From assembly GCF_001695835.1 (NCBI RefSeq), contig NZ_MBSO01000010.1, positions 1 to 64,000 of the forward strand: a stretch of DNA of 64,000 nucleotides. The letters are read 5' to 3'. Numbering within the stretch: position 1 is the first letter of the stretch; each line of letters begins with the position of its first letter. The position numbers and the translations under genes are program-made. Source of the DNA: Ensifer sp. LC11 (GTDB taxonomy: Bacteria > Pseudomonadota > Alphaproteobacteria > Rhizobiales > Rhizobiaceae). The notes under the pieces were generated by a model, which did not search any database, was not told the DNA's origin, and saw nothing but the letters and a program-made list of their open reading frames with translations. Shown in pieces: positions 45,908-63,538 of this stretch.

Positions 45908-48900
45908 ATGAACGATATGCTGAAGACGACGCCTGACTTTTCGACCGATGCCGCAGCGGCGCTCTTGAAGGAGCACTATGGCCTGACCGGCGCGCTTTCG
46001 CTGCTAGCCAGCGAACGCGATCAGAATTTCAAGGTCGAGGCCGAAGGCGGCAGCACCTATATTCTGAAGATCATCAATGCCGCTGAGCCCGAAGTCGAAA
46101 GCGATTTCCAGACGGCGCTGCTCGGTCACGTCGGCACCCATGCCGCCGATCTGCCGGTGCCGCATATCCGCCCGACGCTCACCGGCACGAGCCTCGCTTC
46201 GACCGTGAGCCCGCGCGGCGTCACCCACCGCCTGCGGCTCGTGAGCTGGGTCGAGGGCCTGCCGCTTGCCGAAACCGGACGCAGCGACGCGGCCCTTCAG
46301 TCGCTCGGGCAGATGCTCGGCCGCTTCGACGCGTCGCTCAAAGGCTTCATGCATCCGGGGGCGCTGCGCGATCTCGACTGGGACATCCGCCATGCCGGCC
46401 GTTCGGCCGCCCGGCTGCATCACGTCGCTTCCGCCGAAGACCGCGCGCTGCTGGAGCGCTTCCTCGCCCGCTTCGAAAAATCCGTCGCGCCGCGGCTTGC
46501 GACCCTTCGCGCCGCGGTCATCCACAACGACGCCAACGACTGGAACGTGCTCGTCGCCAAGGCCGATCACGACCAGATCTCCGGCCTGATCGATTTCGGC
46601 GACGCGCTACATGCGCCCGTCATCGCAGAGGTCGCGATCGCCGCCGCCTATGCCGGGCTCGATCATCCCGACCCGATCGGCGCTGCCGCCGCGATTGCCC
46701 GCGGCTTCCATCAGGAATATCCGCTGATCGAGGAGGAGGTCGATCTCCTCTTTGATCTCATCGCCATGCGCCTCGTCACCTCGGTCACCATCTCGGCCTC
46801 GCGTCGGGCCCATACCGACGACAACCCCTATCTCGCGATCAGCGAACGGCCGGCCTGGGCGCTGCTGCGCAAGCTCGACCGGATGAACCCGCGGTTTGCC
46901 ACCGCCATCCTGCGCAAGGCCTGCGGCTTCGAGGCAACCCCAGGGGCCTGCAGAGTCGCCGCCTGGATCAACGCCAACCGCAAGACGCTGAAGCCGCTGC
47001 TCGAACGGCCGGCCGCCACCTACCCGGCAGCGCTGGTGCCCTACGGCGACCCCAAGCATCCGATGACGGTAAAATCTTCAGGCGAACAGCCGGACGAAGC
47101 CCAGGCGATCTGGGAAGATTATTGCCGCGAGCACGGTATCGCGCTCGGTATCGGCCCCTTCGGCGAGGAACGCACGGTCTATGCGGGCGAGATGTTCGTC
47201 TCGCGCTTCATCGACCACACCCGCCGCACCCGCCATCTCGGCCTCGACCTGTTCATGGCTGCCGGCACCAAGGTCTACACACCGCTCGCCGCCACCGTCG
47301 TCAGCGTCGAGATCGAGAAAGACCCGCTCGGCTACGGCTGCCTGATCGCACTTCGCCACGAGCCCGAGGGCTGCCCGCCCTTCGTCACCCTCTGGGGCCA
47401 CATGGCGCATGAAGCCATGGCCCGCATCAAGGCCGGCGATCGGCTGGAAGCCGGCGCGCTCGTCGGCGAGATGGGTGCACCGAAGGAAAATGGCGGCTGG
47501 GCGCCGCATCTGCACCTGCAGCTTTCGACCGACACCAGCCTGACGGCGACCGAAATCCTCGGCGTCGGCGAACCCCAGTTTCTCGACGTCTGGGCCGAGC
47601 TGTTCCCGGATGCCCGCACCTTTGCCGGCATCGCCGAAGAGTTCTACGAAAAGAAGGGCCGCTCGCACGAAGAGATCGTCAGGCGGCGCAAGGAATTGCT
47701 GCTGCCGAACCTGTCGATCTCCTACGACAAGCCGATCAAGTTCGTGCGCGGCGAAGGCGTCTGGCTGATCGACGACAGCGGCCGCGCCTATCTCGACTGC
47801 TTCAACAATGTCTGCCACATCGGCCATGCGCATCCGGCTGTTGTCGAGGCGATGGCGAAACAGGCGGCGATCCTCAACACCAACACCCGCTACCTGCACG
47901 ACAACATCGTCGCCTATGCCGAGCGGCTGACTTCGACGCTGCCGAAGGAGTTGACGGTTGCCGGTTTCGTCAACAGCGGCTCGGAGGCCAACAGCCTGGC
48001 GCTCAGGCTGATGCGCGCCCATACCGGCCGGGAAAACGCGATCACGCTCGACTGGTCCTATCACGGCACGACCCAGGAGCTGATCGACATCAGCCCCTAC
48101 AAGTTCCGCCGCAAGGGCGGCAAAGGACCAAAGCCGCATGTCCATGTGGCGACCATTCCCGACAGCTACCATGCGCCGGCGGACTGGCCGGCCGAGGAAC
48201 ACGGCAAGCGTTTTGCCGAAAGCGTCGCCGAACTGATCGCAGCCATGAAGGCCAAGGGCGAAGGTCCGGGCTTCTTCATCGCGGAATCGATCCCGAGCGT
48301 CGCCGGTCAGGTGTTCCTGCCGGAGGGTTACTTGCAGGAAGTCTATCGCCTGGTGCGCGAGGCGGGCGGCGTCTGCATCGCCGACGAAGTGCAGGTCGGA
48401 TTCGGCCGCGTCGGCAGCCATTGGTGGGCCTTCGAGACGCAAGGGGTCGTGCCAGACATCGTCACCATGGGCAAGCCGATCGGCGACGGCCATCCGCTGG
48501 CAGCGGTCGTCACCACCCGCGAGGTCACCGACAGCTTCAACAACGGCATGGAATATTTCAACACCTTCGGCGGCAACCCGGTCTCCTGCGCCGTCGGCCT
48601 TGCCGTACTCGACGTGATCGAGGGACAGGATCTGCGCGGCAACGCGCTTTCGATCGGCAACTATCTGATCGACGCCTTCCGCGCCATGCAGGCCCGCTAT
48701 GAAGTGATCGGCGACGTGCGCGGCATGGGCCTGTTCCTCGGCATCGAGCTCGTCTCGGACCGCAAGACGAAGGCACCGGCAACCGAGTTCGCTCGCGCCG
48801 TCTCCAACGGCGCACGGCGACGCGGGGTGCTGATGGGCACCGAGGGGCCGCATGACAACATCTTGAAGATGCGTCCGCCGATGATCTTCTCGATGCGTGA

Positions 48901-48964
48901 TGCCGATCATCTGATCGCCGTGCTCGAAGAGACTTTCGCAGACGTGGCGAAATCGCTCGGCTAG
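45908..48964 (+). CDS. Tri-domain APH kinase - M23 peptidase-like - class III PLP enzyme
   Basis: 1018 residues in three domains. (1) Aminoglycoside-phosphotransferase/choline-kinase fold at about 1-330, with catalytic loop [13 protein letters not shown] near 203 and DFGD-type metal motif LIDFGDALH near 228. (2) LytM/M23-like domain at about 430-550 with all expected zinc ligands: HLGLD near 441, LWGHM near 493 and HLHLQL near 534. (3) Class III aminotransferase/phospho-lyase at about 590-1015 with [10 protein letters not shown] and the PLP Lys in [10 protein letters not shown] near 855. Known analogy: hydroxylysine kinase with 5-phosphohydroxylysine phospho-lyase, and ethanolamine-phosphate phospho-lyase. 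Predicted two-step breakdown of an amino alcohol; the M23 part's role is unknown. ATG 45908 follows GAGGA. Confidence 0.88.
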
Positions 48965-49068
48965 CGCCGGGTCGAACAGCAGCAAAACAACATGGATTGG
49001 CCGGGATGTGAACGCGTCCCGGCAGCGAAGACGCATGCCCTAAAAACATCAAAGAGGAGAACAGGACA

Positions 49069-50091
49069 ATGAAACTTGGAGTGAAACTTGGAGTTCTGGC
49101 ACTGGCGAGCACGGCGTTGCTCGCCGGCACCGCCGCACATGCCGGCACGCTCGACGTCATCAAGGAGCGCGGCGAACTTCGCTGCGGCGTCAGCCAGGGC
49201 GTGCTCGGCTTTTCCGCGCCCAACGACAAGGGCGAGTGGAGCGGCTTCGACATTGATTTCTGCCGCGCGGTCGCTGCCGCGGCCCTCGGCAACCCCGACA
49301 AGGTGAAGTATGTGCCGCTCTCGACCAAGGAGCGCTTCACCGCGCTGCAGTCGGGCGAGGCTGACCTTCTGTCGCGCCAGACCACCTGGACGCTGTCGCG
49401 CGACACCGACCTCGGCATGAGCTTCGTCGGCGTCAACTACTACGACGGCCAGGCCTTCATGGTGCGCAACGATCTCGGCGTGAAGAGCGTCAAGGACCTT
49501 TCGGGCGCCTCCGTCTGCACCGAGACCGGCACGACGACCGAGCAGAACATGGCGGATTACTTCGGCGCCAACAACATCCAGTACCACGTGGTCGCCTTCG
49601 AAAAGGCCGATCAGACGATCCAGGCCTTCAACACCGCGCGCTGCGACGTCTATTCGACCGACGCCTCCGCGCTTTATGCCCAGCGCCTGACGCTCAACGA
49701 CCCGGATCGCTTTGTCGTGCTGCCGGAAGTGATCTCCAAGGAGCCTCTCGGCCCAGCCGTCCGCCAGGGCGACGACCAGTGGTTCAAGGTCGTGCGCTGG
49801 ACGCTGTTTGCGCTGACGGAAGCCGAAGAGCTCGGCATCACCAAGGACAATGCCGCCAAGCTCATCGAAAGCGGCACCACCGCCCAGAAGCGCTTCCTCG
49901 GCATCGAGAACGAAGCCGGAAAGTCGCTCGGCCTCGATCCGAAATGGGCTTACCAGGCGGTTTCCGCCGTCGGCAACTACGGCGAAGTTTTCGAACGTCA
50001 CCTGGGCAAGGACAGCCCGCTGAAGATCGAGCGCGGCCTCAACAAACTCTGGAGCCAGGGCGGCCTGATGTACGCTCCGCCGGCACGCTGA
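49069..50091 (+). CDS. Polar amino-acid ABC transporter substrate-binding protein (AapJ-like)
   Basis: 340-residue periplasmic binding protein with a clean signal peptide (cleavage at AHA-GT near residue 25). The SBP_bac_3 domain shows GELRCGVSQGVLGFSAPNDKG, FDIDFCRAVAAA, LTFQSGEADLLSRQTTWTLS-type strands and a final LWSQGGLMYAPPAR, matching the AapJ/BztA family for general L-amino acids. No cognate permease or ATPase genes of that family are nearby, so it is an orphan. It lies 105 bp after the tri-domain gene on the same strand and is closed by a terminator. AGAGGAG precedes ATG 49069. Confidence 0.9.
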   Translation: MKLGVKLGVLALASTALLAGTAAHAGTLDVIKERGELRCGVSQGVLGFSAPNDKGEWSGFDIDFCRAVAAAALGNPDKVKYVPLSTKERFTALQSGEADLLSRQTTWTLSRDTDLGMSFVGVNYYDGQAFMVRNDLGVKSVKDLSGASVCTETGTTTEQNMADYFGANNIQYHVVAFEKADQTIQAFNTARCDVYSTDASALYAQRLTLNDPDRFVVLPEVISKEPLGPAVRQGDDQWFKVVRWTLFALTEAEELGITKDNAAKLIESGTTAQKRFLGIENEAGKSLGLDPKWAYQAVSAVGNYGEVFERHLGKDSPLKIERGLNKLWSQGGLMYAPPAR

Positions 50092-50096
50092 TCCCC

Positions 50097-50493: not shown

Positions 50494-51381
50494 TTAGAGC
50501 TTGACGATCGTCTTGCGGGCAAGCAGGCCCTGCGGCGCGAAGAGAAGCACGCCGATGACGAGCAGGATGGTAAAGGCGTCACGGTAGCTGAGCAGGCTTT
50601 CCGGCAGATAGGCCTGCAGGAACACCTCGATGAAGCCGAGCAGGAAGCCGCCGGCAACCGCACCCGACAGGCTGCCGAGCCCGCCGATGATTGCGGCGAT
50701 GAAGGCTTTGAGCACCGGCAGGAAGCCCATCAGCGGATCGACGCTGCCGCGCTGCGCCACCCAGAGGATGCCGGCGACACCGGCAAGCAGGCCGGAGATC
50801 GCAAAGGCGGTGGCAACCACCGCATTGGCGCGGATGCCCATCAGCCGGACGATGGCGAAATCTTCGGAAGCCGCGCGCATGGCACGACCAAGCACGGTCG
50901 TGCGCAGAAAGAGATTGAGGCCGACCAGCATGATGATCGTCACCAGGATCGACGTGCCCTGGATGAGGCCGAGATGCAGGCCGCCAATCTCGATTGTCCC
51001 TGAAAAGCTTTCGGGCATCGGCACCGGCTTCGGCCGGGCTGAAATGAAGTTCTGGAAGATGACGCGCAGGATGGCGCTGACGGCAAAGCTCGTCAGAAGC
51101 AGCGTCGTCCCACTGGCGCCGCGTACCGGCCGAAAGGCGATGCGCTCCATCAGCATGGCAAGCACGATGGCGATCATCAGCGCCGCGCAGACGGCGAGCG
51201 GAAACGGCAGCCCCAGCAACAGGGCGAAGCAGAGGCCGTAGCCGGCTGCCGTCATCAGCTCGCCATGGGCGAAGTTGATGAGCCCCATGATCGAGAAGAC
51301 GACCGCAAGCCCAAGCGCTAGAAGCGCATAGGTGCCGCCGAGGCTCAGCGCATTGACGAGCTGCTGCAGGAACATGTCCAT
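50494..51381 (-). CDS. livH: Branched-chain-amino-acid-type ABC permease LivH
   Basis: 295-residue membrane permease. The start is MDMFLQQLVNALSLGGTYAL, and LINFAHGELMTAAGYG is the LivH signature. About eight hydrophobic helices follow, with RAASEDFAIVRLMGI as the coupling (EAA-like) loop and LGSLSGAVAGGFLLGFIEVF near the end. ATG 51381 has GAGG upstream. It is the last gene of a four-gene minus-strand transporter operon, 25 bp after livF. Substrate could be an amide or amine related to the enzymes encoded next door. Confidence 0.92.
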   Translation of the reverse strand: MDMFLQQLVNALSLGGTYALLALGLAVVFSIMGLINFAHGELMTAAGYGLCFALLLGLPFPLAVCAALMIAIVLAMLMERIAFRPVRGASGTTLLLTSFAVSAILRVIFQNFISARPKPVPMPESFSGTIEIGGLHLGLIQGTSILVTIIMLVGLNLFLRTTVLGRAMRAASEDFAIVRLMGIRANAVVATAFAISGLLAGVAGILWVAQRGSVDPLMGFLPVLKAFIAAIIGGLGSLSGAVAGGFLLGFIEVFLQAYLPESLLSYRDAFTILLVIGVLLFAPQGLLARKTIVKL

Positions 51382-51406
51382 GGTCTTGACCTCTTGCCCG
51401 CGGGCC

Positions 51407-52144
51407 TCAGGCGCCGAGATAGGCGCCCTGAATTTCGGATGAATTGCGCAGATCGGCGGCCGTACCCGACAGCACGATCCGGCCATTGGCCATGACGTAG
51501 CCGGCGTCCGCGATCTCGAGCGACAGCGACACGTTCTGCTCGACGAGAAGGATCGTCAGGCCTTTTTGCCTGAGCCCGGCGATCAGGTCGAAGATCAGGT
51601 CGACCACCTGTGGCGCAAGGCCGAGCGAGGGTTCGTCAAGCAACAACAGATCAGGCGACGACATCATCGAGCGGGCGATCGCCAGCATCTGCTGTTCGCC
51701 GCCGGAGAGCGAACCGGCCTTCTGGGTCAGCCGCTCCTTCAGGATCGGGAAGCGCGACAGCATATCCTCGCGCACCTCGAAGATCGCGCCGCGCGCCTTG
51801 TGCATGGCGCCGCCGAGCAAGAGGTGTTCGTCGACTGTGAGACTTGGAAAGATCCGCCGCCCCTCCGGCGTCAGCGTCATGCCGAGCCGGACGATCTGCT
51901 CCGGTGCGAGGCCTGAAATATCCTGGCCGTTGAATGCGACGCGTCCCGCCTTCTTCGCCGCCAGCCCGACAAGGGAATTCAAGGTTGAACTCTTGCCGGC
52001 ACCATTGGCGCCGAGAAGCGTCACGATCTGCCCCTTGCCGACGGTGAGATCGACGCCCTTCAGCGCCTCGACCGCGCCATAGGCGACCTTGAGACCGCTG
52101 ACTTCGAGCAGCGGTTTCGGAACGGGAATTTCACTCATCATCAT
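51407..52144 (-). CDS. livF: ABC transporter ATPase LivF
   Basis: About 245-residue ATP-binding subunit. Walker A LLGANGAGKSS is near residue 40, the signature LSGGEQQMLAIAR near 145, Walker B LLLLDEPSLGL near 165, and the LivF-specific MTLTPEGRRIFPSLTV lies between. Three consecutive ATGs (52144, 52141, 52138) could start it; I took the first. It follows the binding-protein gene after 85 bp and precedes livH. Confidence 0.93.
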   Translation of the reverse strand: MMMSEIPVPKPLLEVSGLKVAYGAVEALKGVDLTVGKGQIVTLLGANGAGKSSTLNSLVGLAAKKAGRVAFNGQDISGLAPEQIVRLGMTLTPEGRRIFPSLTVDEHLLLGGAMHKARGAIFEVREDMLSRFPILKERLTQKAGSLSGGEQQMLAIARSMMSSPDLLLLDEPSLGLAPQVVDLIFDLIAGLRQKGLTILLVEQNVSLSLEIADAGYVMANGRIVLSGTAADLRNSSEIQGAYLGA

Positions 52145-52229
52145 CGGGGCAAAGTCCTTGCCGTGGATTGCAGTGCGGGCAGCCGCAGGAGCGATCCCCG
52201 GCAAACCGGGGACCGTCCCGTGAGGTCGA

Positions 52230-53393
52230 TCAGGGTGCCGGAACGTCGGCGGCGGCCGGAACGCCCTGGCTGATCAGCTGGCGGTTGCCGCCTTCGATCT
52301 GCACCAGCGAGACCGAGCGCATCGGCATGCCTTGCGTGCCGGCATAGCTGATCGGGCCGGTGACACCCTGGACGTTTTCGAGCGAGGCAATGGCGTTGCG
52401 GATCGCGACCGGGTCTATGCTGTTGGCTTCCGTCACCGCTGCGTCGATCACCTTGCCGAGATCGTAGCCGTTGGCGATGTAGACCGTGTCCGGTTCCTGA
52501 CCGAATTTTTCCTTGTACTTCACGTTGAAGTCCGCGAGCGGGCTGCCGTCGCTGGCAAAGCCGGCAGTCGTAAAGACGACACCGTCGACCGTCGCGCCGA
52601 GACCGAAGGTCGTCGGAGAATCGATGCCGTCGCTGCCGAGGATCGGGGTCGTGACACCGGCGCCGCGCAGCTGGCGGATGAAGGCCGGGAAGTCCGGCTC
52701 GTAGGCCGCCGTCATGATCACGTCGGGCGCCGGATTCATCGCCTTGATCTTGGTGACCTCGGCGCCGAAGTCCTGCTGGCCCATGCTGTAGGTACCCTCA
52801 CCGAGGAGCTCGCCGCCCTTGGCCTTGAAAGCGGTAGCGAAATATTCAGGGAGCTTCAGCGTATAAGCGCTGTCCGGCGACTTCAGGATGTAGGCCTTCT
52901 TGTAACCCTTCTCGGTGGCATAGGTGGCAAGCACCGAAGCCTGGACGTTGTCGGCCGGATAGTTGCCGAACATGTAGTCGCCAACCGCAAGCGGCATGGT
53001 CGGGGTCGTGGCGCAGAAAGAGAAGGCCGGGATCTGCGCCGCCTGGGTCACCTGTCCGGCGGCAATCGACGGATCGGCGTCGCAGGGCGTGATCACGATC
53101 TTGACGCCCTCATCGACCAGCTCCTGCGCCACCAGCGCCGTCTGCGCCGCATCCGAGCGGGTATCCTTGGCGACGAGCTTGATCGGGAACTTGCCGGCGG
53201 CCCCACCAGCCGCGTTGATTTCCTCGACGGCCATTTCCAGACCCTTCAGCGACGGCTGGTCGTAGGGCGCAAGGCCGCCGGTCTGCGCGGTTGCAAGGCC
53301 GATGACCAGGTCTTCGGCCAGCGCCGGCAGCGGCGAGAGGGCGAAGCCAGTAAGAATGGTGGTGAGGCAGAGTGCCCTAGCGTTGGTTTTCAT
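52230..53393 (-). CDS. livK: Branched-chain-type ABC substrate-binding protein LivK-like
   Basis: 387-residue periplasmic protein. The signal peptide (LCLTTILTGFALSPLPALAE, cleavage near residue 25) is followed by a Peripla_BP_6 domain with GLATAQTGGLAPYDQPSLKG, VITPCDADPSIAAGQV and PIKLVAKDTRSDAAQTA. The binding pocket differs enough from true LivK that substrate cannot be assigned. AGGGAGC lies nine bases before ATG 53393. It lies 20 bp behind the livMG fusion gene, and downstream order is livF, then livH. Confidence 0.92.
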   Translation of the reverse strand: MKTNARALCLTTILTGFALSPLPALAEDLVIGLATAQTGGLAPYDQPSLKGLEMAVEEINAAGGAAGKFPIKLVAKDTRSDAAQTALVAQELVDEGVKIVITPCDADPSIAAGQVTQAAQIPAFSFCATTPTMPLAVGDYMFGNYPADNVQASVLATYATEKGYKKAYILKSPDSAYTLKLPEYFATAFKAKGGELLGEGTYSMGQQDFGAEVTKIKAMNPAPDVIMTAAYEPDFPAFIRQLRGAGVTTPILGSDGIDSPTTFGLGATVDGVVFTTAGFASDGSPLADFNVKYKEKFGQEPDTVYIANGYDLGKVIDAAVTEANSIDPVAIRNAIASLENVQGVTGPISYAGTQGMPMRSVSLVQIEGGNRQLISQGVPAAADVPAP

Positions 53394-53413
53394 CCGAAAA
53401 GCTCCCTCTTTGA

Positions 53414-55294: not shown

Positions 55295-55473
55295 CCGCAT
55301 TCCCCCAGATTTTCTGGCCCGCTCATATTTTTGGCTCGGGCCCGTTCCCGAAATAAACGTTAACGCAGATCGATCAAATGTCAATCTTGTTTCAAAAAAC
55401 ATTCTCTGCTAGCAATTATGTAACAAAAATTAGAAAGCGGAATTCGCGCCATCGTTTTTGGGAGGCAGAAATC
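55295..55473. promoter_or_regulatory. Divergent AT-rich control region of the island
   Basis: Sequence between the divergent livMG and RpiR starts is markedly AT-rich (55360-55440) in an otherwise GC-rich region. It contains a perfect inverted repeat TGTTT-N4-AAACA at 55388-55401, a plausible operator for the RpiR-type protein. AT-rich stretches such as TAACAAAAATTAG at about 55421 may supply the promoters for both directions. Confidence 0.5.
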
Positions 55474-56355
55474 GTGGCAATCCGGGACCGACTGACAGAC
55501 GGCGCCATCACCTTCACGCGCTCTGAACTGAAGATCGTCAGGCAGCTTCTGTCGAACTATCCGGCTGCTGGGCTGAACACGGTTGCGCATCTGGCCGCCG
55601 CCGCCGGCGTCAGCAACCCGACCGTCGTGCGCTTCGCCAACACGCTGGGCTTCGAAGGCTATCCGGAATTCCAGAAGGCGCTGCTCAGCGAAGTGCAGGA
55701 GCGCATGAGTTCGCCGCTCTCCATGCTCGACGAGCGGCGCCCGTCGCTGGAGCAGGAGAACTTCTACCAGTACTTCCTGCGCGCCAGCATCCATGCGCTG
55801 GAATCCTCGATGCAGATGCTGCCTTCGGAGGATTTCGAGGCTGCGGTCGACGCGGCCGCCGACATGAGCGCCCGCATCCATTGCCTCGGCGGCCGCTTCA
55901 GCGGCTTTCTCGCCGGTCTGCTCTGGTCGCACATGAAGCAACTGCGCGGCGACACCCGCTGGATCAACGGCAGCCAGGCCGATCAGGTCGACCAGCTGGT
56001 CGATCTCGGCAAGCGTGACGTGCTCTTCGTCTACGACTACCGCCGCTACCAGAACGACACGATCCGGTTTGCCCGCCGGGCAGCGGCGCAAGGCGCGCGC
56101 ATCGTGCTCTTCACCGACCGCTGGCTCTCGCCGATCGCCGATTTCGCGACCGTGACGCTGACGGCACCGGTGGACACGGTGTCGCCCTACGACACGATGG
56201 TGCCGGCGATCGCCCAGACGGAGGCGGTGATCGCCGCACTCACCGCCCGCCTTGCGACGCAGTCGCGCGGCCGCATCGAGCGCATGGAGGAACTGCGCCG
56301 CGGCTATGCGATCACCGAGGACGCGTTCAGCGCGCCCGTTGAAGACGACCGCTGA
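55474..56355 (+). CDS. RpiR-family regulator with SIS domain
   Basis: 293 residues. The N-terminal HTH_6 domain (SELKIVRQLLSNYPAAGLNT, VSNPTVVRFANTLGFEGYPEF) is followed by a C-terminal SIS sugar-isomerase-fold domain (about 125-260, RIHCLGGRFSGFLAGLLWSH, QGARIVLFTDRWLSPIADFA). RpiR proteins normally sense phosphorylated compounds, which fits a cluster containing kinase-like domains. The start is GTG 55474, eight bases after GGAGG; the longer upstream frame (ATG 55378) runs through the AT-rich operator region. It is co-directional with the catabolic operon that follows 47 bp later. Confidence 0.9.
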   Translation: MAIRDRLTDGAITFTRSELKIVRQLLSNYPAAGLNTVAHLAAAAGVSNPTVVRFANTLGFEGYPEFQKALLSEVQERMSSPLSMLDERRPSLEQENFYQYFLRASIHALESSMQMLPSEDFEAAVDAAADMSARIHCLGGRFSGFLAGLLWSHMKQLRGDTRWINGSQADQVDQLVDLGKRDVLFVYDYRRYQNDTIRFARRAAAQGARIVLFTDRWLSPIADFATVTLTAPVDTVSPYDTMVPAIAQTEAVIAALTARLATQSRGRIERMEELRRGYAITEDAFSAPVEDDR

Positions 56356-56402
56356 CCCTTTCCGCCGCCATGGCGGACCAGACAAACCGAGGAGAATTTC
56401 GA

Positions 56403-57065
56403 ATGAGTGCAGTCACTGTAAAGGTTGGCGACGATCTCTTGAGGCGCGACAGCGCCTATGAGGCGGGCCGAACGTCGCTGCTGTTCGTCGACATGCAGCG
56501 CATCTGGTGCGAGCCGAACCTCGACCCGACCCACCCGCAGGATGCCGACAGCTACTATCACAAGCGCCTGCGCCAGACGGTCATTCCCAATCAGGTCCGC
56601 ATCCTTGAAGCGGCACGAAGGGCCGGTTGCGAGGTGCTACACACCATCATCGAGAGCCTGACGCTCGACGGCCGCGACCGTTCGCTCGACCACAAGCTCT
56701 CCGACATGCATGTGCCGAAGGGATCTCCCGAGGGCCAGGTCATTCCGGAACTCGCACCCGTAGATAACGAGATCGTGCTGCCGAAGACCTCATCTGGCGT
56801 CTTCAACTCGACCAACATCGACTACGTCCTGCGCAATCTCAACACCCGCTACCTGATCATATCAGGCGTCATCACCGACCAGTGTGTCGACATGGCGGTG
56901 CGTGACGCTGCCGACCGCGGCTACCTCGTCACCGTCGTCAACGACGCCTGCGCCACCTACAGCGAACAACGCCACGAAGGCGCGCTTCGCGCCTACTCCG
57001 GCTATTGCTGGACGACCGACACCGAGACCGTTGTCAGCCGCCTCAACGGCCTGCGCCAGGCCTGA
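56403..57065 (+). CDS. Isochorismatase-like cysteine hydrolase
   Basis: 220-residue cysteine hydrolase of the isochorismatase fold. The Asp-Lys-Cys triad is visible in LLFVDMQRIW (Asp near residue 30), VLPKTSSGVFNST (Lys near 127) and SGVITDQCVDMAVRDAADRG (Cys near 163). Family members hydrolyse amides such as nicotinamide, biuret, ureidoacrylate or N-carbamoyl compounds; the long loop RSLDHKLSDMHVPKGSPEG resembles the ureidoacrylate/biuret branch, but the substrate is unproven. GAGGAGAATTTCG lies before ATG 56403. It is the first enzyme gene of the operon. Confidence 0.88.
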   Translation: MSAVTVKVGDDLLRRDSAYEAGRTSLLFVDMQRIWCEPNLDPTHPQDADSYYHKRLRQTVIPNQVRILEAARRAGCEVLHTIIESLTLDGRDRSLDHKLSDMHVPKGSPEGQVIPELAPVDNEIVLPKTSSGVFNSTNIDYVLRNLNTRYLIISGVITDQCVDMAVRDAADRGYLVTVVNDACATYSEQRHEGALRAYSGYCWTTDTETVVSRLNGLRQA

Positions 57066-57095: not shown

Positions 57096-58439
57096 ATGAC
57101 CGAAACCAACAACGGCAAGGCGGCCGCCGAACTGACGGAACTCGCCACCTTCGTGACCACCGACATCGCCGGCATCACCCGCGGCCGCAGCTTCGCCGCG
57201 ACCGAGATCGACAGCTATCTCCGCAAGGGTGTCGGCTGGGTGCCGGCCAATCTGGCGCTCACCCCCTTCGACCTGATTGCCGAAAACAATCCCTGGGGCT
57301 CTGCCGGTGACCTCCGGCTGATGGCCGATCCCGAAAGCAAGGCACGCGTCACCTGCCTGCCCGACGAAACGCCGCTGCATTTCTACCACTCCGACATCAC
57401 CGACCTTCAGGGCAATGCCTGGGACTGCTGCGTGCGCAGCTTCCTGAAACGGACGCTGAAGGAATACGAAGACGCCGGTCTCAAGGTCATCTCCGCCGTC
57501 GAGCAGGAATTCCAGCTTCTCGGCGTCGACTGGCCGGATGCCCCCTCCTTCGGTCTGCGCGCACAGCGCCGGGCCGAGCCTTTCGGCTCGCTGCTGATGA
57601 CCGCCTTGCAGGAGGCGGGCGCCGAGCCGGAAATGTTCCTGCCGGAGTATGGAAAAGACCAATTCGAAATTACCTGCCGTCCGGCCGACGCACTGACCGC
57701 CGCCGACCGCGGCGCCACCATCCGCGCGATCACCAAGGAAGTCGCCGCGCTCTTCGGCTGGAACGCGAGCTTCGCGCCGAAGACGGCTTCTAACGGCGTC
57801 GGCAACGGCGTGCACCTGCATGTGAGCTTCACCGATCTTGACGGCAATCCGGTCACCTTCGACGCATCGCGTCCTGGCCGCCTCTCCATGGTTGCCGGCT
57901 CCTTCGCCGCCGGAGTCATCCGGCATCTGCCGGCGCTCACCGCCTTCACCGCTCCGTCCGTGCTTTCGTACATGCGGCTCGTGCCACACCATTGGAGCGC
58001 CGCCTACACCTGCCTCGGCGAAAAGAACCGCGAAGCGACGCTCCGCATCTGCCCGACGCTCGACCTGCCCGGCAGCAATCCAGCCAAACAGTTCAACATG
58101 GAGTATCGCGCCGCCGATGCCTGCGCCAGCCCGCACCTCTCGCTGGCGGTGCTCTTGAAGGCCGGGCTCGAAGGCATCAAAGCCGGGCTCGAGCAGCCGC
58201 CTTTGATCAATTCCGACCCGTCCGATTTCTCGACCGTAGAACAGGAGACGCTCGGCATCCGCCGCTTGCCGTCCAGTCTCCCCGAAGCACTCGACACGCT
58301 GGCGGCCGATCCCGTCGTCACCGGCTGGTTCTCCAAGGATTTCCTCGACTGCTACGTCGCGATGAAACGCAAGGAGATCGAGATCGTCGATGGGCTCTCG
58401 CCCGATGAACTCTGCGCCCGCTATGCGGCGGTCTACTGA
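57096..58439 (+). CDS. Glutamine-synthetase-family ligase
   Basis: 447 residues of type I GlnA fold. Active-site segments are SAVEQEFQLLGVD (metal Glu residues, near 130), NGVGNGVHLHVSF (metal and ATP site, near 230), EKNREATLRICPT (glutamate-binding Arg, near 308) and EYRAADACASPHLSLAVLL (late Glu/Arg). The N-terminal domain is reduced compared with true GlnA. Members beside class III aminotransferases typically join glutamate to an amine (gamma-glutamylpolyamine or -ethanolamine synthetases, PuuA-like). GGAGGGGAACTC lies before ATG 57096. It lies 30 bp after the cysteine hydrolase gene. Confidence 0.88.
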   Translation: MTETNNGKAAAELTELATFVTTDIAGITRGRSFAATEIDSYLRKGVGWVPANLALTPFDLIAENNPWGSAGDLRLMADPESKARVTCLPDETPLHFYHSDITDLQGNAWDCCVRSFLKRTLKEYEDAGLKVISAVEQEFQLLGVDWPDAPSFGLRAQRRAEPFGSLLMTALQEAGAEPEMFLPEYGKDQFEITCRPADALTAADRGATIRAITKEVAALFGWNASFAPKTASNGVGNGVHLHVSFTDLDGNPVTFDASRPGRLSMVAGSFAAGVIRHLPALTAFTAPSVLSYMRLVPHHWSAAYTCLGEKNREATLRICPTLDLPGSNPAKQFNMEYRAADACASPHLSLAVLLKAGLEGIKAGLEQPPLINSDPSDFSTVEQETLGIRRLPSSLPEALDTLAADPVVTGWFSKDFLDCYVAMKRKEIEIVDGLSPDELCARYAAVY

Positions 58440-58457
58440 TTGACGGATGGGCAGCCC

Positions 58458-59276
58458 ATGACCTCGAAAACGGCCATCAAGAGCCCCGAAATCGGTGCGC
58501 GACACGATCCGAGCACGCCCCTGCTTTCGATCGACGAACTGCCGCCCTATGCGGTGTTCAACCCGGACGGCACTTCGCCGATCCTGCTTCTGTGCGAGCA
58601 TGCGTCCAACCGGATGCCGCGCGCGCTCGGCGACATGGGGCTGCCGCTCCATGAACGCCAGCGCCACATCGCCTGGGACCTCGGCGCCATGGCACTGGCG
58701 CAGCGCTTAAGCCTCAGCCTCGACGCGCCACTGTTCTTCACCAACTATTCGCGCCTGGTGATCGACTGCAACAGGCCATTGGCGGCACCCTCGATGATCC
58801 CCGAGATCAGCGAGGCGACGGAGATCGCCGCCAACAGGAACCTGAGCGACGCAGAGCGACAGCAGCGGATCGACACGCTGTTTGCGCCCTACGCCGATGC
58901 CGTCAGCCGACGTCTCGACCGGCTCGAAGGCGAAGGCAAACGGTCCTTTGTCGTCGGCATCCATAGCTTCACACCCGTCTACTTCGGCAAGCCGCGCCCG
59001 TGGCAGGCCGGTATCCTCTATCGCGATGCGGTCGACTTCGCCGGCTCTTTGATCCGTGAGTTGGCGAGTGAAAGCCATCTGATGATCGGCGACAACGAAC
59101 CCTACAACATCCATCCGGACGAGGACTACACCGTGCCGGTGCATGCCGATGCACGCGGATTGCCGGGCGTGCTGGTCGAGGTGCGGCACGATCTGATCGA
59201 CACTGATGCCGGCGTTGCCGCCTGGGGCGAGCGGCTGACACGGTGTCTCAAGGCCAGCATCGGGCAAGGCTCGTGA
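58458..59276 (+). CDS. N-formylglutamate amidohydrolase-family protein
   Basis: About 272 residues matching the N-formylglutamate amidohydrolase (FGase/HutG2) family. Visible parts are PILLLCEHASNRMP near residue 40 (metal-binding Glu-His), RHIAWDLGAMALAQRL, NYSRLVIDCNRPL and VGIHSFTPVYFGKPRPWQ. The true enzyme removes formate from N-formylglutamate in histidine breakdown, but this family also includes amidohydrolases of other substrates. A TTG at 58440 could start it immediately after the previous stop; I chose ATG 58458. Its stop overlaps the next start (GTGA). Confidence 0.85.
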   Translation: MTSKTAIKSPEIGARHDPSTPLLSIDELPPYAVFNPDGTSPILLLCEHASNRMPRALGDMGLPLHERQRHIAWDLGAMALAQRLSLSLDAPLFFTNYSRLVIDCNRPLAAPSMIPEISEATEIAANRNLSDAERQQRIDTLFAPYADAVSRRLDRLEGEGKRSFVVGIHSFTPVYFGKPRPWQAGILYRDAVDFAGSLIRELASESHLMIGDNEPYNIHPDEDYTVPVHADARGLPGVLVEVRHDLIDTDAGVAAWGERLTRCLKASIGQGS

Positions 59277-60583
59277 CCGCGCTCTATGAGAGGGACAAGG
59301 CGGCAATCGCCACCCTGCAGAAGCTGCGCTTCTTCCCGCTCGCCATTACCGGCGGCCGCGGCGCGCGGGTCGTAGAGGAAGATGGTCGTGAACTGATCGA
59401 CCTCTCCGGCGCCTGGGGTGCGGCGAGCCTCGGCTATGGTCACCCGGCACTTGTCGCAGCGATATCGAATGCCGCAGCCAATCCCGCAGGCGCGAGCGTG
59501 CTTTCGGGCGCCAACCGGCCGGCGACCGAACTCGCCGAAAGGCTGCTCGCCGTCTTCCCGGGACAGAGCGACAACAAGGTCTGGTTCGGCCATTCCGGCT
59601 CCGATGCCAACGAGACGGTCTTTCGTGCCGTTACCAAGGCGACGGGGCGCACGGGTGTCATCGCCTTCCTCGGCGCCTATCACGGCTGCACTGTGGGCTC
59701 GATGGCCTTTTCCGGCCACAGCGTCCAGGCGGGTGCTGCCAAGGCCGAAGGGTTGCTGCTGCTTCCCTACCCCGATCCCTACCGGCCCTATCGCGACGAC
59801 CCGACCGGCGGGGCGATCCTCGCCGAATTGCGGCAGCGCCTCGAAGCGGCACCGGACCAGTTCGCCGCCGCCTTTATCGAGCCCATCCAGTCCGATGGCG
59901 GACTGATCGTTCCGCCACCCGGCTTCTTCACGGCGTTCGCCGCGATCTGCCGCGAATTCGGCGTGCTCGTCGTCTGCGACGAGGTGAAGGTCGGGCTCGG
60001 CCGCAGCGGTCGACTGCACTGCTTCGAGCACGAGGGTTTCACACCGGATATCCTGACCATCGGCAAGGGGCTCGGCGGCGGACTGCCGCTGTCAGCCGCG
60101 ATCGGCCCGGCGCGCATACTCGATTGCGCCAGCGCCTTTGCCATGCAGACGCTGCACGGCAACCCGATCTCTGCCGCGGCGGGCCTTGCGGTGCTGGAAA
60201 CGATCGAACACGAAGCGCTGGCTCAAAACGCCGAGCACAAAGGGCAGCGGCTGCGCCAGGGCCTGCAGCGCTTGGCCGAGCGCCATCGCCTGATCGGCAA
60301 CGTTCGCGGACGCGGCCTTGCCTGTGGCGTCGAACTGGTCGCCGACCGGGAGGCCCGCGCTCCGGCCTCGCGCGAAACGGCCAAGCTCGTCTACCGCGCC
60401 TATGAACTCGGCCTCGTTGTCTATTACGTCGGCATGAATTCGAACGTGCTGGAGATGACACCGCCGCTGACGATCACCGACCAGGACATCGACGCAGCGC
60501 TCGATCTTCTCGACCAGGCATTCGACGACGTAGTGGCCGGTCGCGTCTCTGACGACGTTCTGGCGGATTTTGCCGGCTGGTAG
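59273..60583 (+). CDS. Class III aminotransferase (GABA/omega-amino-acid type)
   Basis: 436-residue PLP enzyme. The active Lys lies in TIGKGLGGGLPLSAAI near residue 265 and Asp in VVCDEVKVGLGRSGRL near 235. SGSDANETVFRAVTK and LGAYHGCTVGSMAF are the usual PLP phosphate and ring contacts. Predicted to transfer an omega-amino group (GABA, beta-amino acid or similar) to a keto acid. The start is GTG 59273, whose TGA overlaps the stop of the amidohydrolase gene. It closes the operon of four coupled genes and converges with the second tri-domain gene. Confidence 0.9.
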   Translation: MTALYERDKAAIATLQKLRFFPLAITGGRGARVVEEDGRELIDLSGAWGAASLGYGHPALVAAISNAAANPAGASVLSGANRPATELAERLLAVFPGQSDNKVWFGHSGSDANETVFRAVTKATGRTGVIAFLGAYHGCTVGSMAFSGHSVQAGAAKAEGLLLLPYPDPYRPYRDDPTGGAILAELRQRLEAAPDQFAAAFIEPIQSDGGLIVPPPGFFTAFAAICREFGVLVVCDEVKVGLGRSGRLHCFEHEGFTPDILTIGKGLGGGLPLSAAIGPARILDCASAFAMQTLHGNPISAAAGLAVLETIEHEALAQNAEHKGQRLRQGLQRLAERHRLIGNVRGRGLACGVELVADREARAPASRETAKLVYRAYELGLVVYYVGMNSNVLEMTPPLTITDQDIDAALDLLDQAFDDVVAGRVSDDVLADFAGW

Positions 60584-60613
60584 CTGGCCCCGGGGGCGTT
60601 GCCGCCTAAGCCC

Positions 60614-63538
60614 TTACCAGCCTTCCTCGAGCACGCGACCCAGCATGTCGGCGAAGAAGTCGGCGCTCTCCTTGGTCAGGCAGAGCGGCGGCTTGATCTT
60701 CAGCACGTTCAAGTGATCGCCGGTCGGCTGCATGATGACGCCGAGATCAAGCAGGCGGTCGCAGATCGCCGCCGTCTCTTCCGTCGCCGGCACGAGGGTC
60801 TCGCGGTCGCGCACGAACTCAACGCCAAGATAAAGCCCCATGCCATGCACGGCACCGATCAGCGGGAAGCGTTGCCCAAGCGCTTCGAGGCGGGCTTTCA
60901 GATAGCCTCCGACGACACGGGCGTTCTCTGGTAACCGTTCTTCCGTCAGGAGGTCGAGCACGGTCTGGCCGACGACGGAACTGACGGGGCTGCCGCCGGA
61001 AGACGAGAAGAAATATCCCTCCTTCTCCAGTGCATCGGCAATTTCGCGCCGGGTGATGACGGCGCCGAGCGGGTGGCCGTTGCCCATGCCCTTGGCGACC
61101 GTGATGATATCGGGCACGACGCCCTGTTCCTCGAAACCCCAGAAATAGTCGCCAAGGCGGCCATAGCCGACCTGTACTTCGTCGGCGATGCACACACCAC
61201 CACGCGCGCGCACCATCGCGTAGACCGCATCGAGATAGCCCTTGGGCAGGGGAATGCCGCCGGCATTGCCATAGACCGGCTCGCAGATAAAACCGGCCAG
61301 CTTTTCACCCGCGGCATCGAGCGCCGTGAGCTTGGTAACGACGGAGCGGGGATAGCTGTCGCGCGTATCGTCGCCGCGGAACTCGCCGCGATAGGTGTTG
61401 GGCGCCGTGACCGGATGGACCCAGGCCGGACGGGTCTGAAGTGCCTGCGGATTGTCGGCGATCGACGTGGACACCGCATCGCTCGCGACCGTCCAGCCAT
61501 GATAGGCCTCCAGCAGGCTGACGACGTTGCGCGCACCGGAATAGGCCCAGGCAAGCCGGAGTGCCAGGTCGTTGGCCTCCGAGCCACTATTGACCAGGAA
61601 CACCGTGTCCAGTCCATCCGGCGCAAGCGCTGCCAGCCGGGCCGAGAATTCGGCAACCGACGCATAGTGGAAGCGCGAATTGGTGTTGAGCAGCGACCAT
61701 TGCCGCCCGACCGCGGCTGCCAGCCGTGGATGCCCATGGCCAAGAATCGTCACGTTGTTGACCATGTCGAGATAGCTGCGACCCTCGATGTCGAAGAGGT
61801 GTTCCTTCCAGCCGCGCTCGATCTGGGGTGGGTGCCGGTAGTACTTCTTCTGCGGCTTGGCAAAGTGCTGCTGGCGACGGGCAAGCAGCGCCTCGCTATG
61901 TGGTTCCGGCGCATCGCATTCGAACCCGAGGATACCTGCCGGCGACGGGCACAGCGCTTTCCAGGCGTCCGCCTGATGCGGCATCACAAAGAGCGGTGGA
62001 ACGAGACCGTGCTCGCGGCAAAGCTGAACGCGGATCAGGCCGAGGGACTGTTGTTCGCCCGTTACGACCCCCAACGCGGACCCGGCAACGATTGTCTCCG
62101 AGAGGCCCGCGCCGACTTCCACCCCTTCGAGAAACAGGTTGGCCTCAGCTCCCTCCAGCACCAGCAGCCCGTCCTGCTGCACGACGCGCGCTGCAAAGGG
62201 GGCGACGATCTCGCTGCCGGCCGCAAGGCAGATATCGACGTGCAGCGCGAAGGTTGCGTCGGGCTTCGGCGATCGCAGCTGGGTCTCGGTCATGCGATAC
62301 TCGCCGTAGCGCGTGGTCGCGATGCCGATCGCGTGCGCCGCATGCTGGAGCAGCGAGACCGGCAATCCCTGGTGTTGCCAGCGCTCCTCCGGCAGGAGCG
62401 GGCTCAGGATCGACAGGTCGATGTGGCGTACATCCGTTGGACCGAGTCCCTGGATCAGGCTCGCTCCGGTCACCGGAGCCGGTTCCGGCGTAAAGCCGAC
62501 GGCCGAAAGAATGGCCTGTTCCATCAGCGCCGAAGGAACCGAGGATGCGACGTCGAATATCTCCCGCTCATGGACGGCATTGCCCTCGACGTAAGTGTTT
62601 TCAGGCTCGCGCGCGAGCTGGTGTTCGGAGCTTGCGACCAGCACGGCGGCGCGGGCGACGATCAGTGGCCAGAGTGCCTTAAGCTCCGTCTCGGTCAAAG
62701 GGCATGCCGCGTGAAACGCCCTGACCGCTGGCAGCATGAACCAGGGGTCGCCGTCGGCATGATGCAGCAGCGAAGCGCAGGTGACGGCGAGTTCAGCGAC
62801 CAGCCAGCCGTTCAGAATGTCGCCGAAATCGATGACGCCATCCGGGATCGCCCGGCCAGCGGCATCCGGCTGGCTCACGACATTGTCGTCGGTGATGTCG
62901 TGGTGGATCGCCTGGATCCGCAGATCCGGTATCAACGGTTGCAGGCGCCGCATGGCGCCAACCACGACTTCGGCGATACGTTTCTTGCGCTGCTGGTCCG
63001 ACATTTCGGCGAGGAGATGGAGAATGACCGGGCCGGCGCGGCGCAGATCCCACTGCAGTTCGCGTTCGAGGCCGGGATGTTCGAAATCTCGTAGAGCCGA
63101 GGCGAGCTGTCCCGCGAGCGCGCCGAGCGCTGCAATCGCCCCCGGCGACAGGTGCTTGCGTCGGGTCAAGGGCTCGCCGTCGAGATAGCTGAGCAGCCGG
63201 ATTCGGTAGGCCTGGTCGCGGACGATCACATTCTCGATCACCTCGCCTTTGAGCGACGGCATGACCTGCGCAACCCGTGCCGATACCAGCCTCTCGGCGA
63301 GATGCTGCAAGGCCGCGTTCTGCGCTTCAAGCTCAAGCAGCCCGTACTCCGCCCGGCAGATCTTCAGCACGTAGCGCCGCTCGCCGGTATCAAGCAGGTA
63401 GTTGCGGTCCTGCTGGCTGCCGAGCTCGCGGATCGCGCCTGACAGACCGTAGTGCTCAGCCAGAAGCGTGGCCGCCTCCTCGGCACTGATATCGGGCCTC
63501 GGCAGCTCGGTACGAAGCTTCAGCGCGTCCTCAACCAT
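60614..63538 (-). CDS. Second tri-domain APH kinase - degenerate M23 - class III PLP enzyme
   Basis: 974-residue paralogue of the protein at 45908-48964. The APH-type kinase domain (about 1-330) keeps AIHHDITDDNVVS near residue 211 and VIDFGDIL near 236. The middle M23-like part (about 430-540) has lost its zinc site: the first His is Ala (TFALHVDICLAAG, Asp kept), no WGH motif is present, and HLHLQL is replaced by LIRVQL. The class III domain (about 570-970) is intact, with ADEVQVGYGRLG and PLP Lys in VAKGMGNGHPLGAV near 814. Predicted amino-alcohol kinase plus phospho-lyase. It starts at ATG 63538 with GGAGG upstream. Confidence 0.88.
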   Translation of the reverse strand: MVEDALKLRTELPRPDISAEEAATLLAEHYGLSGAIRELGSQQDRNYLLDTGERRYVLKICRAEYGLLELEAQNAALQHLAERLVSARVAQVMPSLKGEVIENVIVRDQAYRIRLLSYLDGEPLTRRKHLSPGAIAALGALAGQLASALRDFEHPGLERELQWDLRRAGPVILHLLAEMSDQQRKKRIAEVVVGAMRRLQPLIPDLRIQAIHHDITDDNVVSQPDAAGRAIPDGVIDFGDILNGWLVAELAVTCASLLHHADGDPWFMLPAVRAFHAACPLTETELKALWPLIVARAAVLVASSEHQLAREPENTYVEGNAVHEREIFDVASSVPSALMEQAILSAVGFTPEPAPVTGASLIQGLGPTDVRHIDLSILSPLLPEERWQHQGLPVSLLQHAAHAIGIATTRYGEYRMTETQLRSPKPDATFALHVDICLAAGSEIVAPFAARVVQQDGLLVLEGAEANLFLEGVEVGAGLSETIVAGSALGVVTGEQQSLGLIRVQLCREHGLVPPLFVMPHQADAWKALCPSPAGILGFECDAPEPHSEALLARRQQHFAKPQKKYYRHPPQIERGWKEHLFDIEGRSYLDMVNNVTILGHGHPRLAAAVGRQWSLLNTNSRFHYASVAEFSARLAALAPDGLDTVFLVNSGSEANDLALRLAWAYSGARNVVSLLEAYHGWTVASDAVSTSIADNPQALQTRPAWVHPVTAPNTYRGEFRGDDTRDSYPRSVVTKLTALDAAGEKLAGFICEPVYGNAGGIPLPKGYLDAVYAMVRARGGVCIADEVQVGYGRLGDYFWGFEEQGVVPDIITVAKGMGNGHPLGAVITRREIADALEKEGYFFSSSGGSPVSSVVGQTVLDLLTEERLPENARVVGGYLKARLEALGQRFPLIGAVHGMGLYLGVEFVRDRETLVPATEETAAICDRLLDLGVIMQPTGDHLNVLKIKPPLCLTKESADFFADMLGRVLEEGW

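What the first reader, a model, noticed from the sequence alone, without database searches (positions are those of the whole stretch)
45908..63538. Two paralogous kinase-M23-PLP tri-domain enzymes bracket a catabolic island
Both proteins combine an APH-type kinase ([16 protein letters not shown]), a LytM/M23-like domain and a class III PLP domain (intact Lys and Asp). In animals, hydroxylysine kinase and phospho-lyases AGXT2L1/2 are separate proteins of the same two families, acting in sequence: phosphorylate an amino alcohol, then eliminate phosphate and ammonia. Fusion of both steps, plus a peptidase-like module, and two copies in 18 kb suggests a dedicated pathway. A peptidase-fold domain in such an enzyme has no explained role; it could bind substrate or peptide-linked hydroxylysine.
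Basis: partly seen in the sequence, partly recalled or inferred. Interest (0 to 1): 0.75.

Follow-up and report, generated by a model that had tools for sequence, protein, structure and literature searches.

The report
Kinase–peptidase–lyase fusion enzymes in Ensifer
Two large fused enzymes in a soil bacterium most likely phosphorylate a hydroxylated amine and then split off phosphate and ammonia; the fusion is an already catalogued type, but one of the two has also kept a complete zinc-peptidase active site of unknown purpose, while the other has lost it.

Summary
The two proteins are real and lie where stated. P1 (45908-48964 +) is APH-type kinase + M23 domain + class III PLP domain. P2 (60614-63538 -) is kinase + PLP domain with a shrunken, ligand-less M23 remnant. 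Both are catalogued NCBIfam families (PRK06148, PRK06149). Their PLP domains match human ethanolamine-phosphate phospho-lyase best in the PDB, by sequence and predicted fold: phosphorylation followed by phosphate/ammonia elimination is well supported by homology but untested. New here: five M23 zinc/catalytic residues are invariant in 85 of 85 P1-type rows, and none of 37 P2-type rows keeps more than two, although kinase and PLP domains are about equally conserved in both sets. The genome has a third tri-domain copy, and a split kinase + lyase pair beside homoprotocatechuate genes. P1 has a divergent Lrp/AsnC regulator in 77 of 80 loci and an AapJ-like binding protein in 50 of 80, pointing to an amino-acid-like substrate; hydroxylysine is the leading, unproven candidate. 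The 'island' is a separable amine-glutamylation module, only sometimes next to a tri-domain gene. P2 lies beside a hut-gene neighbourhood.

The parts
45908..48964 (+). P1: kinase-M23-class III PLP tri-domain protein (1018 aa), NCBIfam PRK06148
   Evidence: AlphaFold2 model mean pLDDT 89.4, pTM 0.75
46007..46723 (+). P1 APH-type kinase domain (residues 34-272)
   Evidence: Pfam PF01636 4.7e-27; K54, H206, D208, N213, D229, D232
47231..47533 (+). P1 M23 peptidase domain (residues 442-542) with intact H443, D447, H498, H534, H536
   Evidence: Pfam PF01551 7.4e-13; residues invariant in 85 of 85 P1-type rows
47732..48931 (+). P1 class III PLP domain (residues 609-1008), phospholyase type, K856, D826
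60614..63538 (-). P2: kinase-(M23 remnant)-class III PLP protein (974 aa), NCBIfam PRK06149
   Evidence: AlphaFold2 model mean pLDDT 85.4, pTM 0.85
62741..63433 (-). P2 APH-type kinase domain (residues 36-266)
   Evidence: Pfam 5.7e-25
62012..62269 (-). P2 degenerate M23-like segment (residues about 424-509), metal ligands lost
60632..61822 (-). P2 class III PLP domain (residues 573-969)
45348..45878 (-). Lrp/AsnC-type regulator, divergent from P1
   Evidence: Pfam AsnC domains; found next to P1 by tblastn in 77 of 80 loci
49069..50091 (+). family-3 amino-acid binding protein (called AapJ-like by eye), downstream of P1
   Evidence: Pfam SBP_bac_3, TIGR01096 198 bits, below its cut-off of 256; present in 50 of 80 P1 loci
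50494..55402 (-). branched-chain-type ABC transporter: permease, ATPase, binding protein, permease-ATPase fusion
   Evidence: Pfam for the last three; ORFs; first permease by its conservation as LivPerm and by eye
55378..56355 (+). RpiR-type regulator with SIS domain
   Evidence: Pfam
56370..57065 (+). isochorismatase-like cysteine hydrolase; nearest solved relatives are biuret-hydrolase-type cysteine hydrolases
57096..58439 (+). glutamine-synthetase-like protein, probable gamma-glutamyl amine ligase; nearest PDB 4hpp (PA5508)
58440..59276 (+). N-formylglutamate amidohydrolase-like protein; not HutG by NCBIfam cut-off
   Evidence: Pfam FGase 1.5e-39; TIGR02017 29 bits against 279 needed
59276..60583 (+). 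class III aminotransferase of the island
   Evidence: Pfam
63655..64000 (-). GntR/UTRA-type regulator (cut by the window edge) upstream of P2; hutF follows beyond the window
   Evidence: UTRA; hutF TIGR02022 705 bits, cut-off 413 (L222)

Best explanation
Both proteins are fused catabolic enzymes that act on a compound bearing a hydroxyl next to a primary amine (HO-CHR-CH2-NH2). The N-terminal APH domain uses a nucleoside triphosphate to phosphorylate the hydroxyl. The C-terminal PLP domain binds the amine through its lysine and eliminates phosphate and ammonia, leaving the aldehyde R-CH2-CHO. P1 additionally keeps a complete zinc-peptidase site; I infer that it first releases the hydroxy-amine from a peptide or amide, so that P1 runs hydrolysis, phosphorylation and elimination on one chain. 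P2 works on free substrate and has lost that step. For P1 the local Lrp/AsnC regulator and amino-acid binding protein favour a hydroxylated amino acid: 5-hydroxylysine first (product 2-aminoadipate semialdehyde, for which the genome has downstream enzymes), 4-hydroxyornithine (product glutamate semialdehyde) as an alternative. Shown by sequence: domains, intact sites, gene neighbourhood. Inferred by homology: reaction type. Guess: substrate identity and the role of M23.
For: Phospholyase type: P1 PLP domain vs 6tor 467 bits and 5g4i 348 bits, the only two PDB sequences at E<=1e-80; fold matches 1-4 are chains of these two entries, 49% and 41% identity, same entries first for P2, 42% and 34%. 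Kinase: catalytic D, N and both D of DFGD present in all 135 aligned rows that have the domain. Coupling: kinase and PLP domain also occur fused without M23 (L171) and as a gene pair (L098; 17 of 18 relatives' loci). M23: H443, D447, H498, H534, H536 all present in 85/85 P1-type rows (65/65 representatives under 97% PLP identity), 9/9 other tri-domain rows (7 representatives) and 1/1 kinase-less M23-PLP protein; none of 37 P2-type rows keeps three or more. At matched PLP identity (0.76 and 0.77) M23 identity is 0.72 in P1-type pairs and 0.39 in P2-type pairs, kinase 0.62 and 0.60. Amino-acid-like substrate for P1: Lrp-type gene divergent in 77/80 loci, binding protein in 50/80. Hydroxylysine: HglS and L-piperidine-6-carboxylate dehydrogenase over their cut-offs at another locus; HglS in 19/26 genomes with P1 against 43/173 others. 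No EutB found in this genome.
Against: No activity of any of these proteins has been measured in anything I could read. The HglS association is confounded by kinship and genome size, HglS also serves ordinary lysine breakdown, and 7 of 26 P1 genomes lack it, among them G229, whose P1 is in an island-type operon. No aminoadipate-pathway gene was recognised next to P1. The M23 domain is absent from four kinase-PLP fusions, so it is not needed for the pair. P2's PLP domain differs at positions shared by P1, 6tor and 5g4i (NTFGGNP in P1 reads SSSGGSP), so its substrate or even its reaction may differ. The linker before M23 is also less conserved in P2-type (0.36 against 0.56), so relaxation is not confined to M23. 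The P1 model (pTM 0.75) says nothing about channelling.
Confidence: 0.65

Rival explanations
1. The M23 domain of P1 is a non-peptidase metal or ligand binder (structural or regulatory), not a third catalytic step.
For: Four kinase-PLP fusions lack it (architecture only). By eye P1 has no signal peptide (no predictor was run), while M23 enzymes usually act on the cell wall (recalled).
Against: All five zinc/catalytic positions, including the His of the WGH motif, are invariant in 85/85, 9/9 and 1/1 rows; a merely structural domain should tolerate changes, as the P2 remnant does.
Confidence: 0.4
2. P1 and the island between it and P2 form one pathway: the branched-chain-type transporter imports an amine or amide, the GS-like ligase and hydrolases process it, and P1 completes its breakdown.
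For: Tri-domain gene + GS-like + RpiR + FGase-like + isochorismatase-like + transporter recur together in L074, L081, L191, L175, L176, L180 and Paracoccus L224, with tri-domain proteins only 38-68% identical to P1 or to the third copy (in L175 no isochorismatase was seen within the stretch).
Against: 7 of 8 plasmid loci opened (of 57 matching records) have no tri-domain gene in the 10-12 kb on either side, checked by tblastn at E<=1e-5 because the plasmid gene table is incomplete (L228 shows only part of the island). Only 8 of 80 P1 loci show the island within the flank held, 6 of them Ensifer-type. In G343 P1 and P2 are adjacent without it.
Confidence: 0.35
3. The substrate is ethanolamine (phosphorylated, then split to acetaldehyde), not an amino acid.
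For: Best PDB match of the PLP domain is ethanolamine-phosphate phospho-lyase; no EutB in the genome.
Against: Phosphohydroxylysine phospho-lyase is a sister enzyme of the same family in animals (recalled), and no structure of it appeared among the hits, so the match cannot discriminate. Lrp regulator and amino-acid binding protein beside P1. Four kinase-lyase systems in one genome are unlikely all to serve ethanolamine.
Confidence: 0.25
4. The PLP domains are ordinary class III transaminases and the kinase acts on something else.
For: Most characterised Aminotran_3 members are transaminases (PMC8154272, passage); P2's PLP domain is the more divergent one.
Against: For P1 the two phospholyases outrank the next PDB sequence by more than 150 bits, for P2 by 52 bits or more; kinase and lyase recur together as fusions and as a gene pair.
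Confidence: 0.08

Closest known systems
NCBIfam PRK06148 (NF004799) and PRK06149 (NF004800)
   Same: P1 scores 1666 bits (cut-off 1128), P2 1548 bits (cut-off 973), end to end
   Different: Nothing; these are the families. They carry no informative functional name ('hypothetical protein'; 'aminotransferase').
Ethanolamine-phosphate phospho-lyase (ETNPPL, 6tor) and Arthrobacter phospholyase A1RDF1 (5g4i)
   Same: PLP domain, 49% and 41% identity for P1 in the fold alignment
   Different: Stand-alone in the PDB entries; in P1/P2 fused to a kinase, in P1 also to an intact M23 domain.
Animal hydroxylysine kinase (HYKK) and 5-phosphohydroxylysine phospho-lyase (PHYKPL)
   Same: Same two superfamilies acting in sequence (recalled; Veiga-da-Cunha et al. 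2012, not held)
   Different: Separate proteins; no sequence of either was available here, so closeness was not measured.
Split kinase + phospholyase beside homoprotocatechuate genes (own genome, L098)
   Same: Same two activities expected; lyase 422 bits to 5g4i
   Different: Two genes, no M23, aromatic catabolic neighbourhood.
Peptidase family M23 (LytM/lysostaphin type)
   Same: P1 has H, D, HxH and the WGH His
   Different: Inside a metabolic fusion protein; P2's copy has lost the site.
PA5508-type gamma-glutamyl amine ligase (P. aeruginosa PA5506-PA5509)
   Same: Island GS-like protein, 449 bits to 4hpp, next best 122. PA5508 is said to prefer bulky amines (passage in PMC6478659); other papers call it a mono-/polyamine enzyme (passages)
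   Different: Belongs to the island, not to P1/P2.

Membership tests
PRK06148 / PRK06149 (NCBIfam) | score over curated cut-off, full length | tested here: met
   P1 1666.2 > 1128; P2 1547.6 > 973
Class III PLP phospholyase (ETNPPL/PHYKPL group) | sequence and fold closest to characterised phospholyases, PLP Lys and Asp present | tested here: met
Class III PLP phospholyase (ETNPPL/PHYKPL group) | releases phosphate and ammonia from a phospho-amino alcohol | not testable with these tools
   needs enzyme assay
APH-type small-molecule kinase | Pfam APH over cut-off; catalytic Asp, Asn, DFGD and Lys | tested here: met
Hydroxylysine kinase (HYKK) specifically | closest relative is HYKK; phosphorylates 5-hydroxylysine | not tested
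   no PDB sequence matched the P1 kinase domain at E<=0.01; no HYKK sequence at hand; no assay
Peptidase M23 (P1) | H, D, HxH zinc ligands and base His; Pfam over cut-off | tested here: met
   85 of 85 P1-type rows; Pfam 48.9 bits, cut-off 28.7
Peptidase M23 (P2) | H, D, HxH zinc ligands and base His; Pfam over cut-off | tested here: not met
   first His is A in 36 and T in 1 of 37; Asp kept in 26 of 37; base-His column a gap in 37; first HxH His kept in 3, second in 0 of 37; no Pfam match
Peptidase M23 (P1) | hydrolyses a peptide bond | not testable with these tools
   needs enzyme assay

The most novel reading that the evidence does not exclude
P1 is a three-step enzyme: a cytosolic zinc peptidase of the M23 fold frees a hydroxylated amino acid (for instance hydroxylysine from a small peptide or amide), the kinase phosphorylates it and the lyase converts it to an aldehyde, all on one chain. 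As far as I recall it would be the first M23 enzyme built into amino-acid catabolism rather than cell-wall work, and P2 is the same machine after losing the first step.
Probability: 0.3. Interest if true: 0.65.

Novelty: new member of a known kind. Interest (0 to 1): 0.45.

Why it matters
Hundreds of relatives of these proteins exist in alphaproteobacteria under family names that say 'hypothetical protein' or 'aminotransferase'. If the reaction assignment holds, those names are uninformative or wrong, and a bacterial counterpart of the human hydroxylysine/phosphoethanolamine pathway becomes testable in a soil bacterium. The contrast between P1-type (third site frozen) and P2-type (third site lost, other two kept) makes the role of the M23 module a clean experimental question: same scaffold, with and without it.

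Tried and rejected
Rejected: P2 as a working tri-domain enzyme. Rejected: island FGase-like protein as HutG (29 bits against a 279 cut-off). Weakened: one 18-kb pathway, because the island stood alone in 7 of 8 plasmid loci opened. P2 neighbourhoods vary: of 20 loci fetched (from the 29 genomes over cut-off) the GntR/UTRA cluster is in 4, the hutF cluster in 4, and a Pot-type transporter (judged by eye) in another 4.

Tried without result: the 2012 JBC paper and two structure papers are not held. Of the ten paper searches, aimed at these proteins or this chemistry (30, 58, 85 at neighbours); in listings and opened passages I saw no account of the tri-domain proteins, which means only not in the open-licence library by those terms. 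The single PRK06148 mention is a domain label on a Mycoplasma lipoprotein in a table; the two SMc00679 mentions concern a regulator. The kinase domain gave nothing in the PDB at E<=0.01. The VIA-align library was not installed. The lyase-kinase frame in L214 (741 aa) was not used as evidence for fusion, since its PLP domain lacks the last 46 profile positions.

Counts and their limits: an ORF-based count of P1 neighbours (Lrp 40, binding protein 44, both 19 of 79 loci) was replaced by the tblastn count (77, 50 and 49 of 80) because my ORF caller picks the longest start and often hid the short upstream gene; it missed P1 in L029 altogether. The 136-row alignment holds only proteins over 640 aa that my ORF caller found and that matched P1; it contains the window's P1 twice, some genomes twice under different names, and L097/L103 are the same locus; representatives under 97% PLP identity are 65 P1-type, 31 P2-type, 7 other. 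Pairs are not independent. The group 'P1 genome' in the HglS table is my cut at over 1500 bits; three genomes with only other tri-domain proteins count among the 173.
Full report
What is there. The window lies in an Ensifer-like genome (nearest named loci are Ensifer at 94-95% protein identity). P1 (45908-48964 +, 1018 aa) contains APH, Peptidase_M23 and Aminotran_3 domains; P2 (60614-63538 -, 974 aa) contains APH and Aminotran_3, and no M23 at E<=0.001. NCBIfam files them as PRK06148 (P1, 1666 bits, cut-off 1128) and PRK06149 (P2, 1548 bits, cut-off 973). So the architecture is catalogued.

More copies. The genome holds a third tri-domain protein (G000:C3:97018-100011, 1371 bits to PRK06148) and a stand-alone relative of the PLP domain (G000:C23:371429-372709, 523 bits). 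The third copy follows a family-3 binding protein, a permease and a short-chain dehydrogenase (Pfam); these three precede its relatives in 7 of 7 loci fetched for it (L182-L188), and a LacI-type gene (judged by eye) in 5 of 7. In G262 (L189) the same LacI-binding protein-permease-dehydrogenase set lies directly behind P1 and its binding protein, which hints that P1 and the third copy serve related substrates.

Reaction type. The PLP domain of P1 gives 467 bits against human ethanolamine-phosphate phospho-lyase (6tor) and 348 against Arthrobacter phospholyase 5g4i, whereas the next PDB sequence in the whole-protein search, a racemase, has 192. P2 gives 337 and 260, then 208; the third copy 482 and 307. 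AlphaFold2 models (mean pLDDT 89.4 for P1; 85.4 for P2) have chains of 6tor and 5g4i in ranks 1-4 of a library of 350,542 PDB chains. PLP Lys and Asp are in all 136 aligned rows; the kinase catalytic Asp, Asn and both Asp of DFGD are in all 135 rows with a kinase domain. That a kinase precedes a phospholyase is supported by kinase-PLP fusions without M23 (L171 by Pfam; L172, L173 and L102 by alignment) and by a split pair in this same genome (below). The reaction itself is inferred.

The M23 module. H443, D447, H498, H534 and H536 of P1 are identical in 85 of 85 P1-type rows (65 of 65 representatives under 97% PLP identity), in 9 of 9 other tri-domain rows (7 representatives) and in the one kinase-less M23-PLP protein, L174. 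In the 37 P2-type rows the first His is replaced (A 36, T 1), the Asp is kept in 26, the column of the WGH His is a gap in 37, the first HxH His is kept in 3 and the second in none; no row keeps three of the five. The P2 segment is nevertheless homologous to the P1 domain (hhalign 89% probability, E 2e-6). As a control I compared pairs with the same PLP divergence: mean identity in P1-type pairs is 0.76 PLP, 0.62 kinase, 0.56 linker before M23, 0.72 M23; in P2-type pairs 0.77, 0.60, 0.36, 0.39 (1960 and 450 pairs, not independent). So in P2-type proteins M23 and the linker before it are relaxed while kinase and PLP domains are held. The PLP tree puts P2-type on its own branch (100/98), L174 with the third copy (100/90), and the M23-less fusions L171-L173 as a clade (100/100) inside the non-P2 group, which fits repeated loss of single modules from a tri-domain ancestor; the outgroup branch is very long, so the root is unsure.

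Neighbourhood of P1. By tblastn, a divergent Lrp/AsnC-type gene lies within 600 bp upstream in 77 of 80 P1 loci and the binding-protein gene just downstream in 50 of 80, both in 49. Two of the three loci without Lrp (L074, L081) are loci in which P1 is the last gene of an island-type operon. Local Lrp/AsnC regulators usually respond to amino acids (general knowledge), so an amino-acid-like substrate is favoured. For 5-hydroxylysine the product would be 2-aminoadipate semialdehyde; the genome encodes L-piperidine-6-carboxylate dehydrogenase (817 bits, cut-off 730) and 2-oxoadipate dioxygenase HglS (754, cut-off 550) in one cluster on another contig. HglS occurs in 19 of 26 P1 genomes and 43 of 173 others (Fisher p 3e-6, ignoring kinship and genome size); 7 P1 genomes lack it. 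This is suggestive only.

The island. Transporter of the branched-chain type, RpiR regulator, isochorismatase-like hydrolase, GS-like ligase, N-formylglutamate-amidohydrolase-like protein and class III aminotransferase. The GS-like protein matches 4hpp (PA5508) at 449 bits, next best 122. PA5508 is reported to prefer bulky amines such as catecholamines over linear polyamines (passage in PMC6478659), though other papers describe it as a mono-/polyamine enzyme (passages). Similar sets accompany tri-domain genes in L074, L081, L191, L175, L176, L180 and in Paracoccus seriniphilus L224 (tri-domain protein 45% identical to P1), in at least three families. Against an obligatory link: of 8 plasmid loci opened (of 57 records with a match) only L224 has a tri-domain or kinase match in the stretch (tblastn), and only 8 of 80 P1 loci show the island within the flank held. 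The link is recurrent, not obligatory.

Neighbourhood of P2. In the window a GntR/UTRA regulator lies upstream on the same strand and hutF beyond it (705 bits, cut-off 413). Among 20 fetched P2 loci that regulator cluster occurs in 4 and the hutF cluster in 4. In G343 P1 and P2 are 1.2 kb apart with no island, and in G327 P2 sits by the regulator and hutF while no P1 was found (G327 is not among the matches). P2's presence here is thus better explained by a hut-side position than by the island.

Split pair. At C23 (L098) a stand-alone APH kinase and a stand-alone phospholyase (422 bits to 5g4i) lie beside HpaE, HpaH and CHMI, an aminotransferase, a transporter and an aldehyde dehydrogenase. 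In 18 relatives' loci fetched (of 19 other genomes matching) the pair is present in 17 and HpaE with further hpa genes in 9. Chemistry suggests a beta-hydroxylated phenethylamine such as octopamine or noradrenaline; this is a prediction.

Published knowledge. Recalled, not read: Veiga-da-Cunha et al. 2012 (J Biol Chem; reference seen in the list of PMC8154272) used bacterial bi- or tri-functional homologues with an APH-type kinase to find human hydroxylysine kinase and the two phospholyases. The paper is not held. Seven searches of the open library aimed at these proteins or this chemistry showed no experimental work on them in the listings; only a few of the listed papers were opened, at passages.

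Verdict. The point of real interest is the frozen zinc site in P1-type and its loss in P2-type proteins.

Noticed in passing
L098 (G000:C23:362500-382000), 7906-10207 -: Stand-alone APH kinase and stand-alone phospholyase next to a PRK07481 aminotransferase, an aldehyde dehydrogenase, an amino-acid transporter and homoprotocatechuate genes (HpaE 785 bits, cut-off 638; HpaH 448, cut-off 352; CHMI). The pair is in 17 and hpa genes in 9 of 18 relatives' loci. This predicts breakdown of octopamine- or noradrenaline-like amines by phosphorylation and elimination to an arylacetaldehyde.
   Followed up: partly
L174, 8220-10295 -: A tri-domain relative that lost the kinase but kept an intact M23 site and the PLP domain (692 aa); no P1-, P2- or third-copy-type kinase matched anywhere in the 19.9-kb stretch at E<=1e-5.
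   Followed up: partly
L171, L172, L173, L102: Kinase-PLP fusions of 776-788 aa with no M23 domain (Pfam for L171 only).
   Followed up: partly
L189 (G262:C1:267000-286900), 7670-18272: P1 with Lrp and binding protein is followed by the LacI-binding protein-permease-dehydrogenase set that elsewhere accompanies the third copy; related clusters also appear in about 5 of 80 P1 loci.
   Followed up: no
L221 (G000:C25:1-16000), 2738-8497 -: Probable lysine/aminoadipate breakdown cluster: HglS, FAD-linked oxidase, L-piperidine-6-carboxylate dehydrogenase, aminotransferase (the last below its family's cut-off).
   Followed up: partly
window 40553-40632 -: ARAGORN reports a tRNA-like gene of undetermined type with a four-base anticodon (cgcg), probably a false call.
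   Followed up: no
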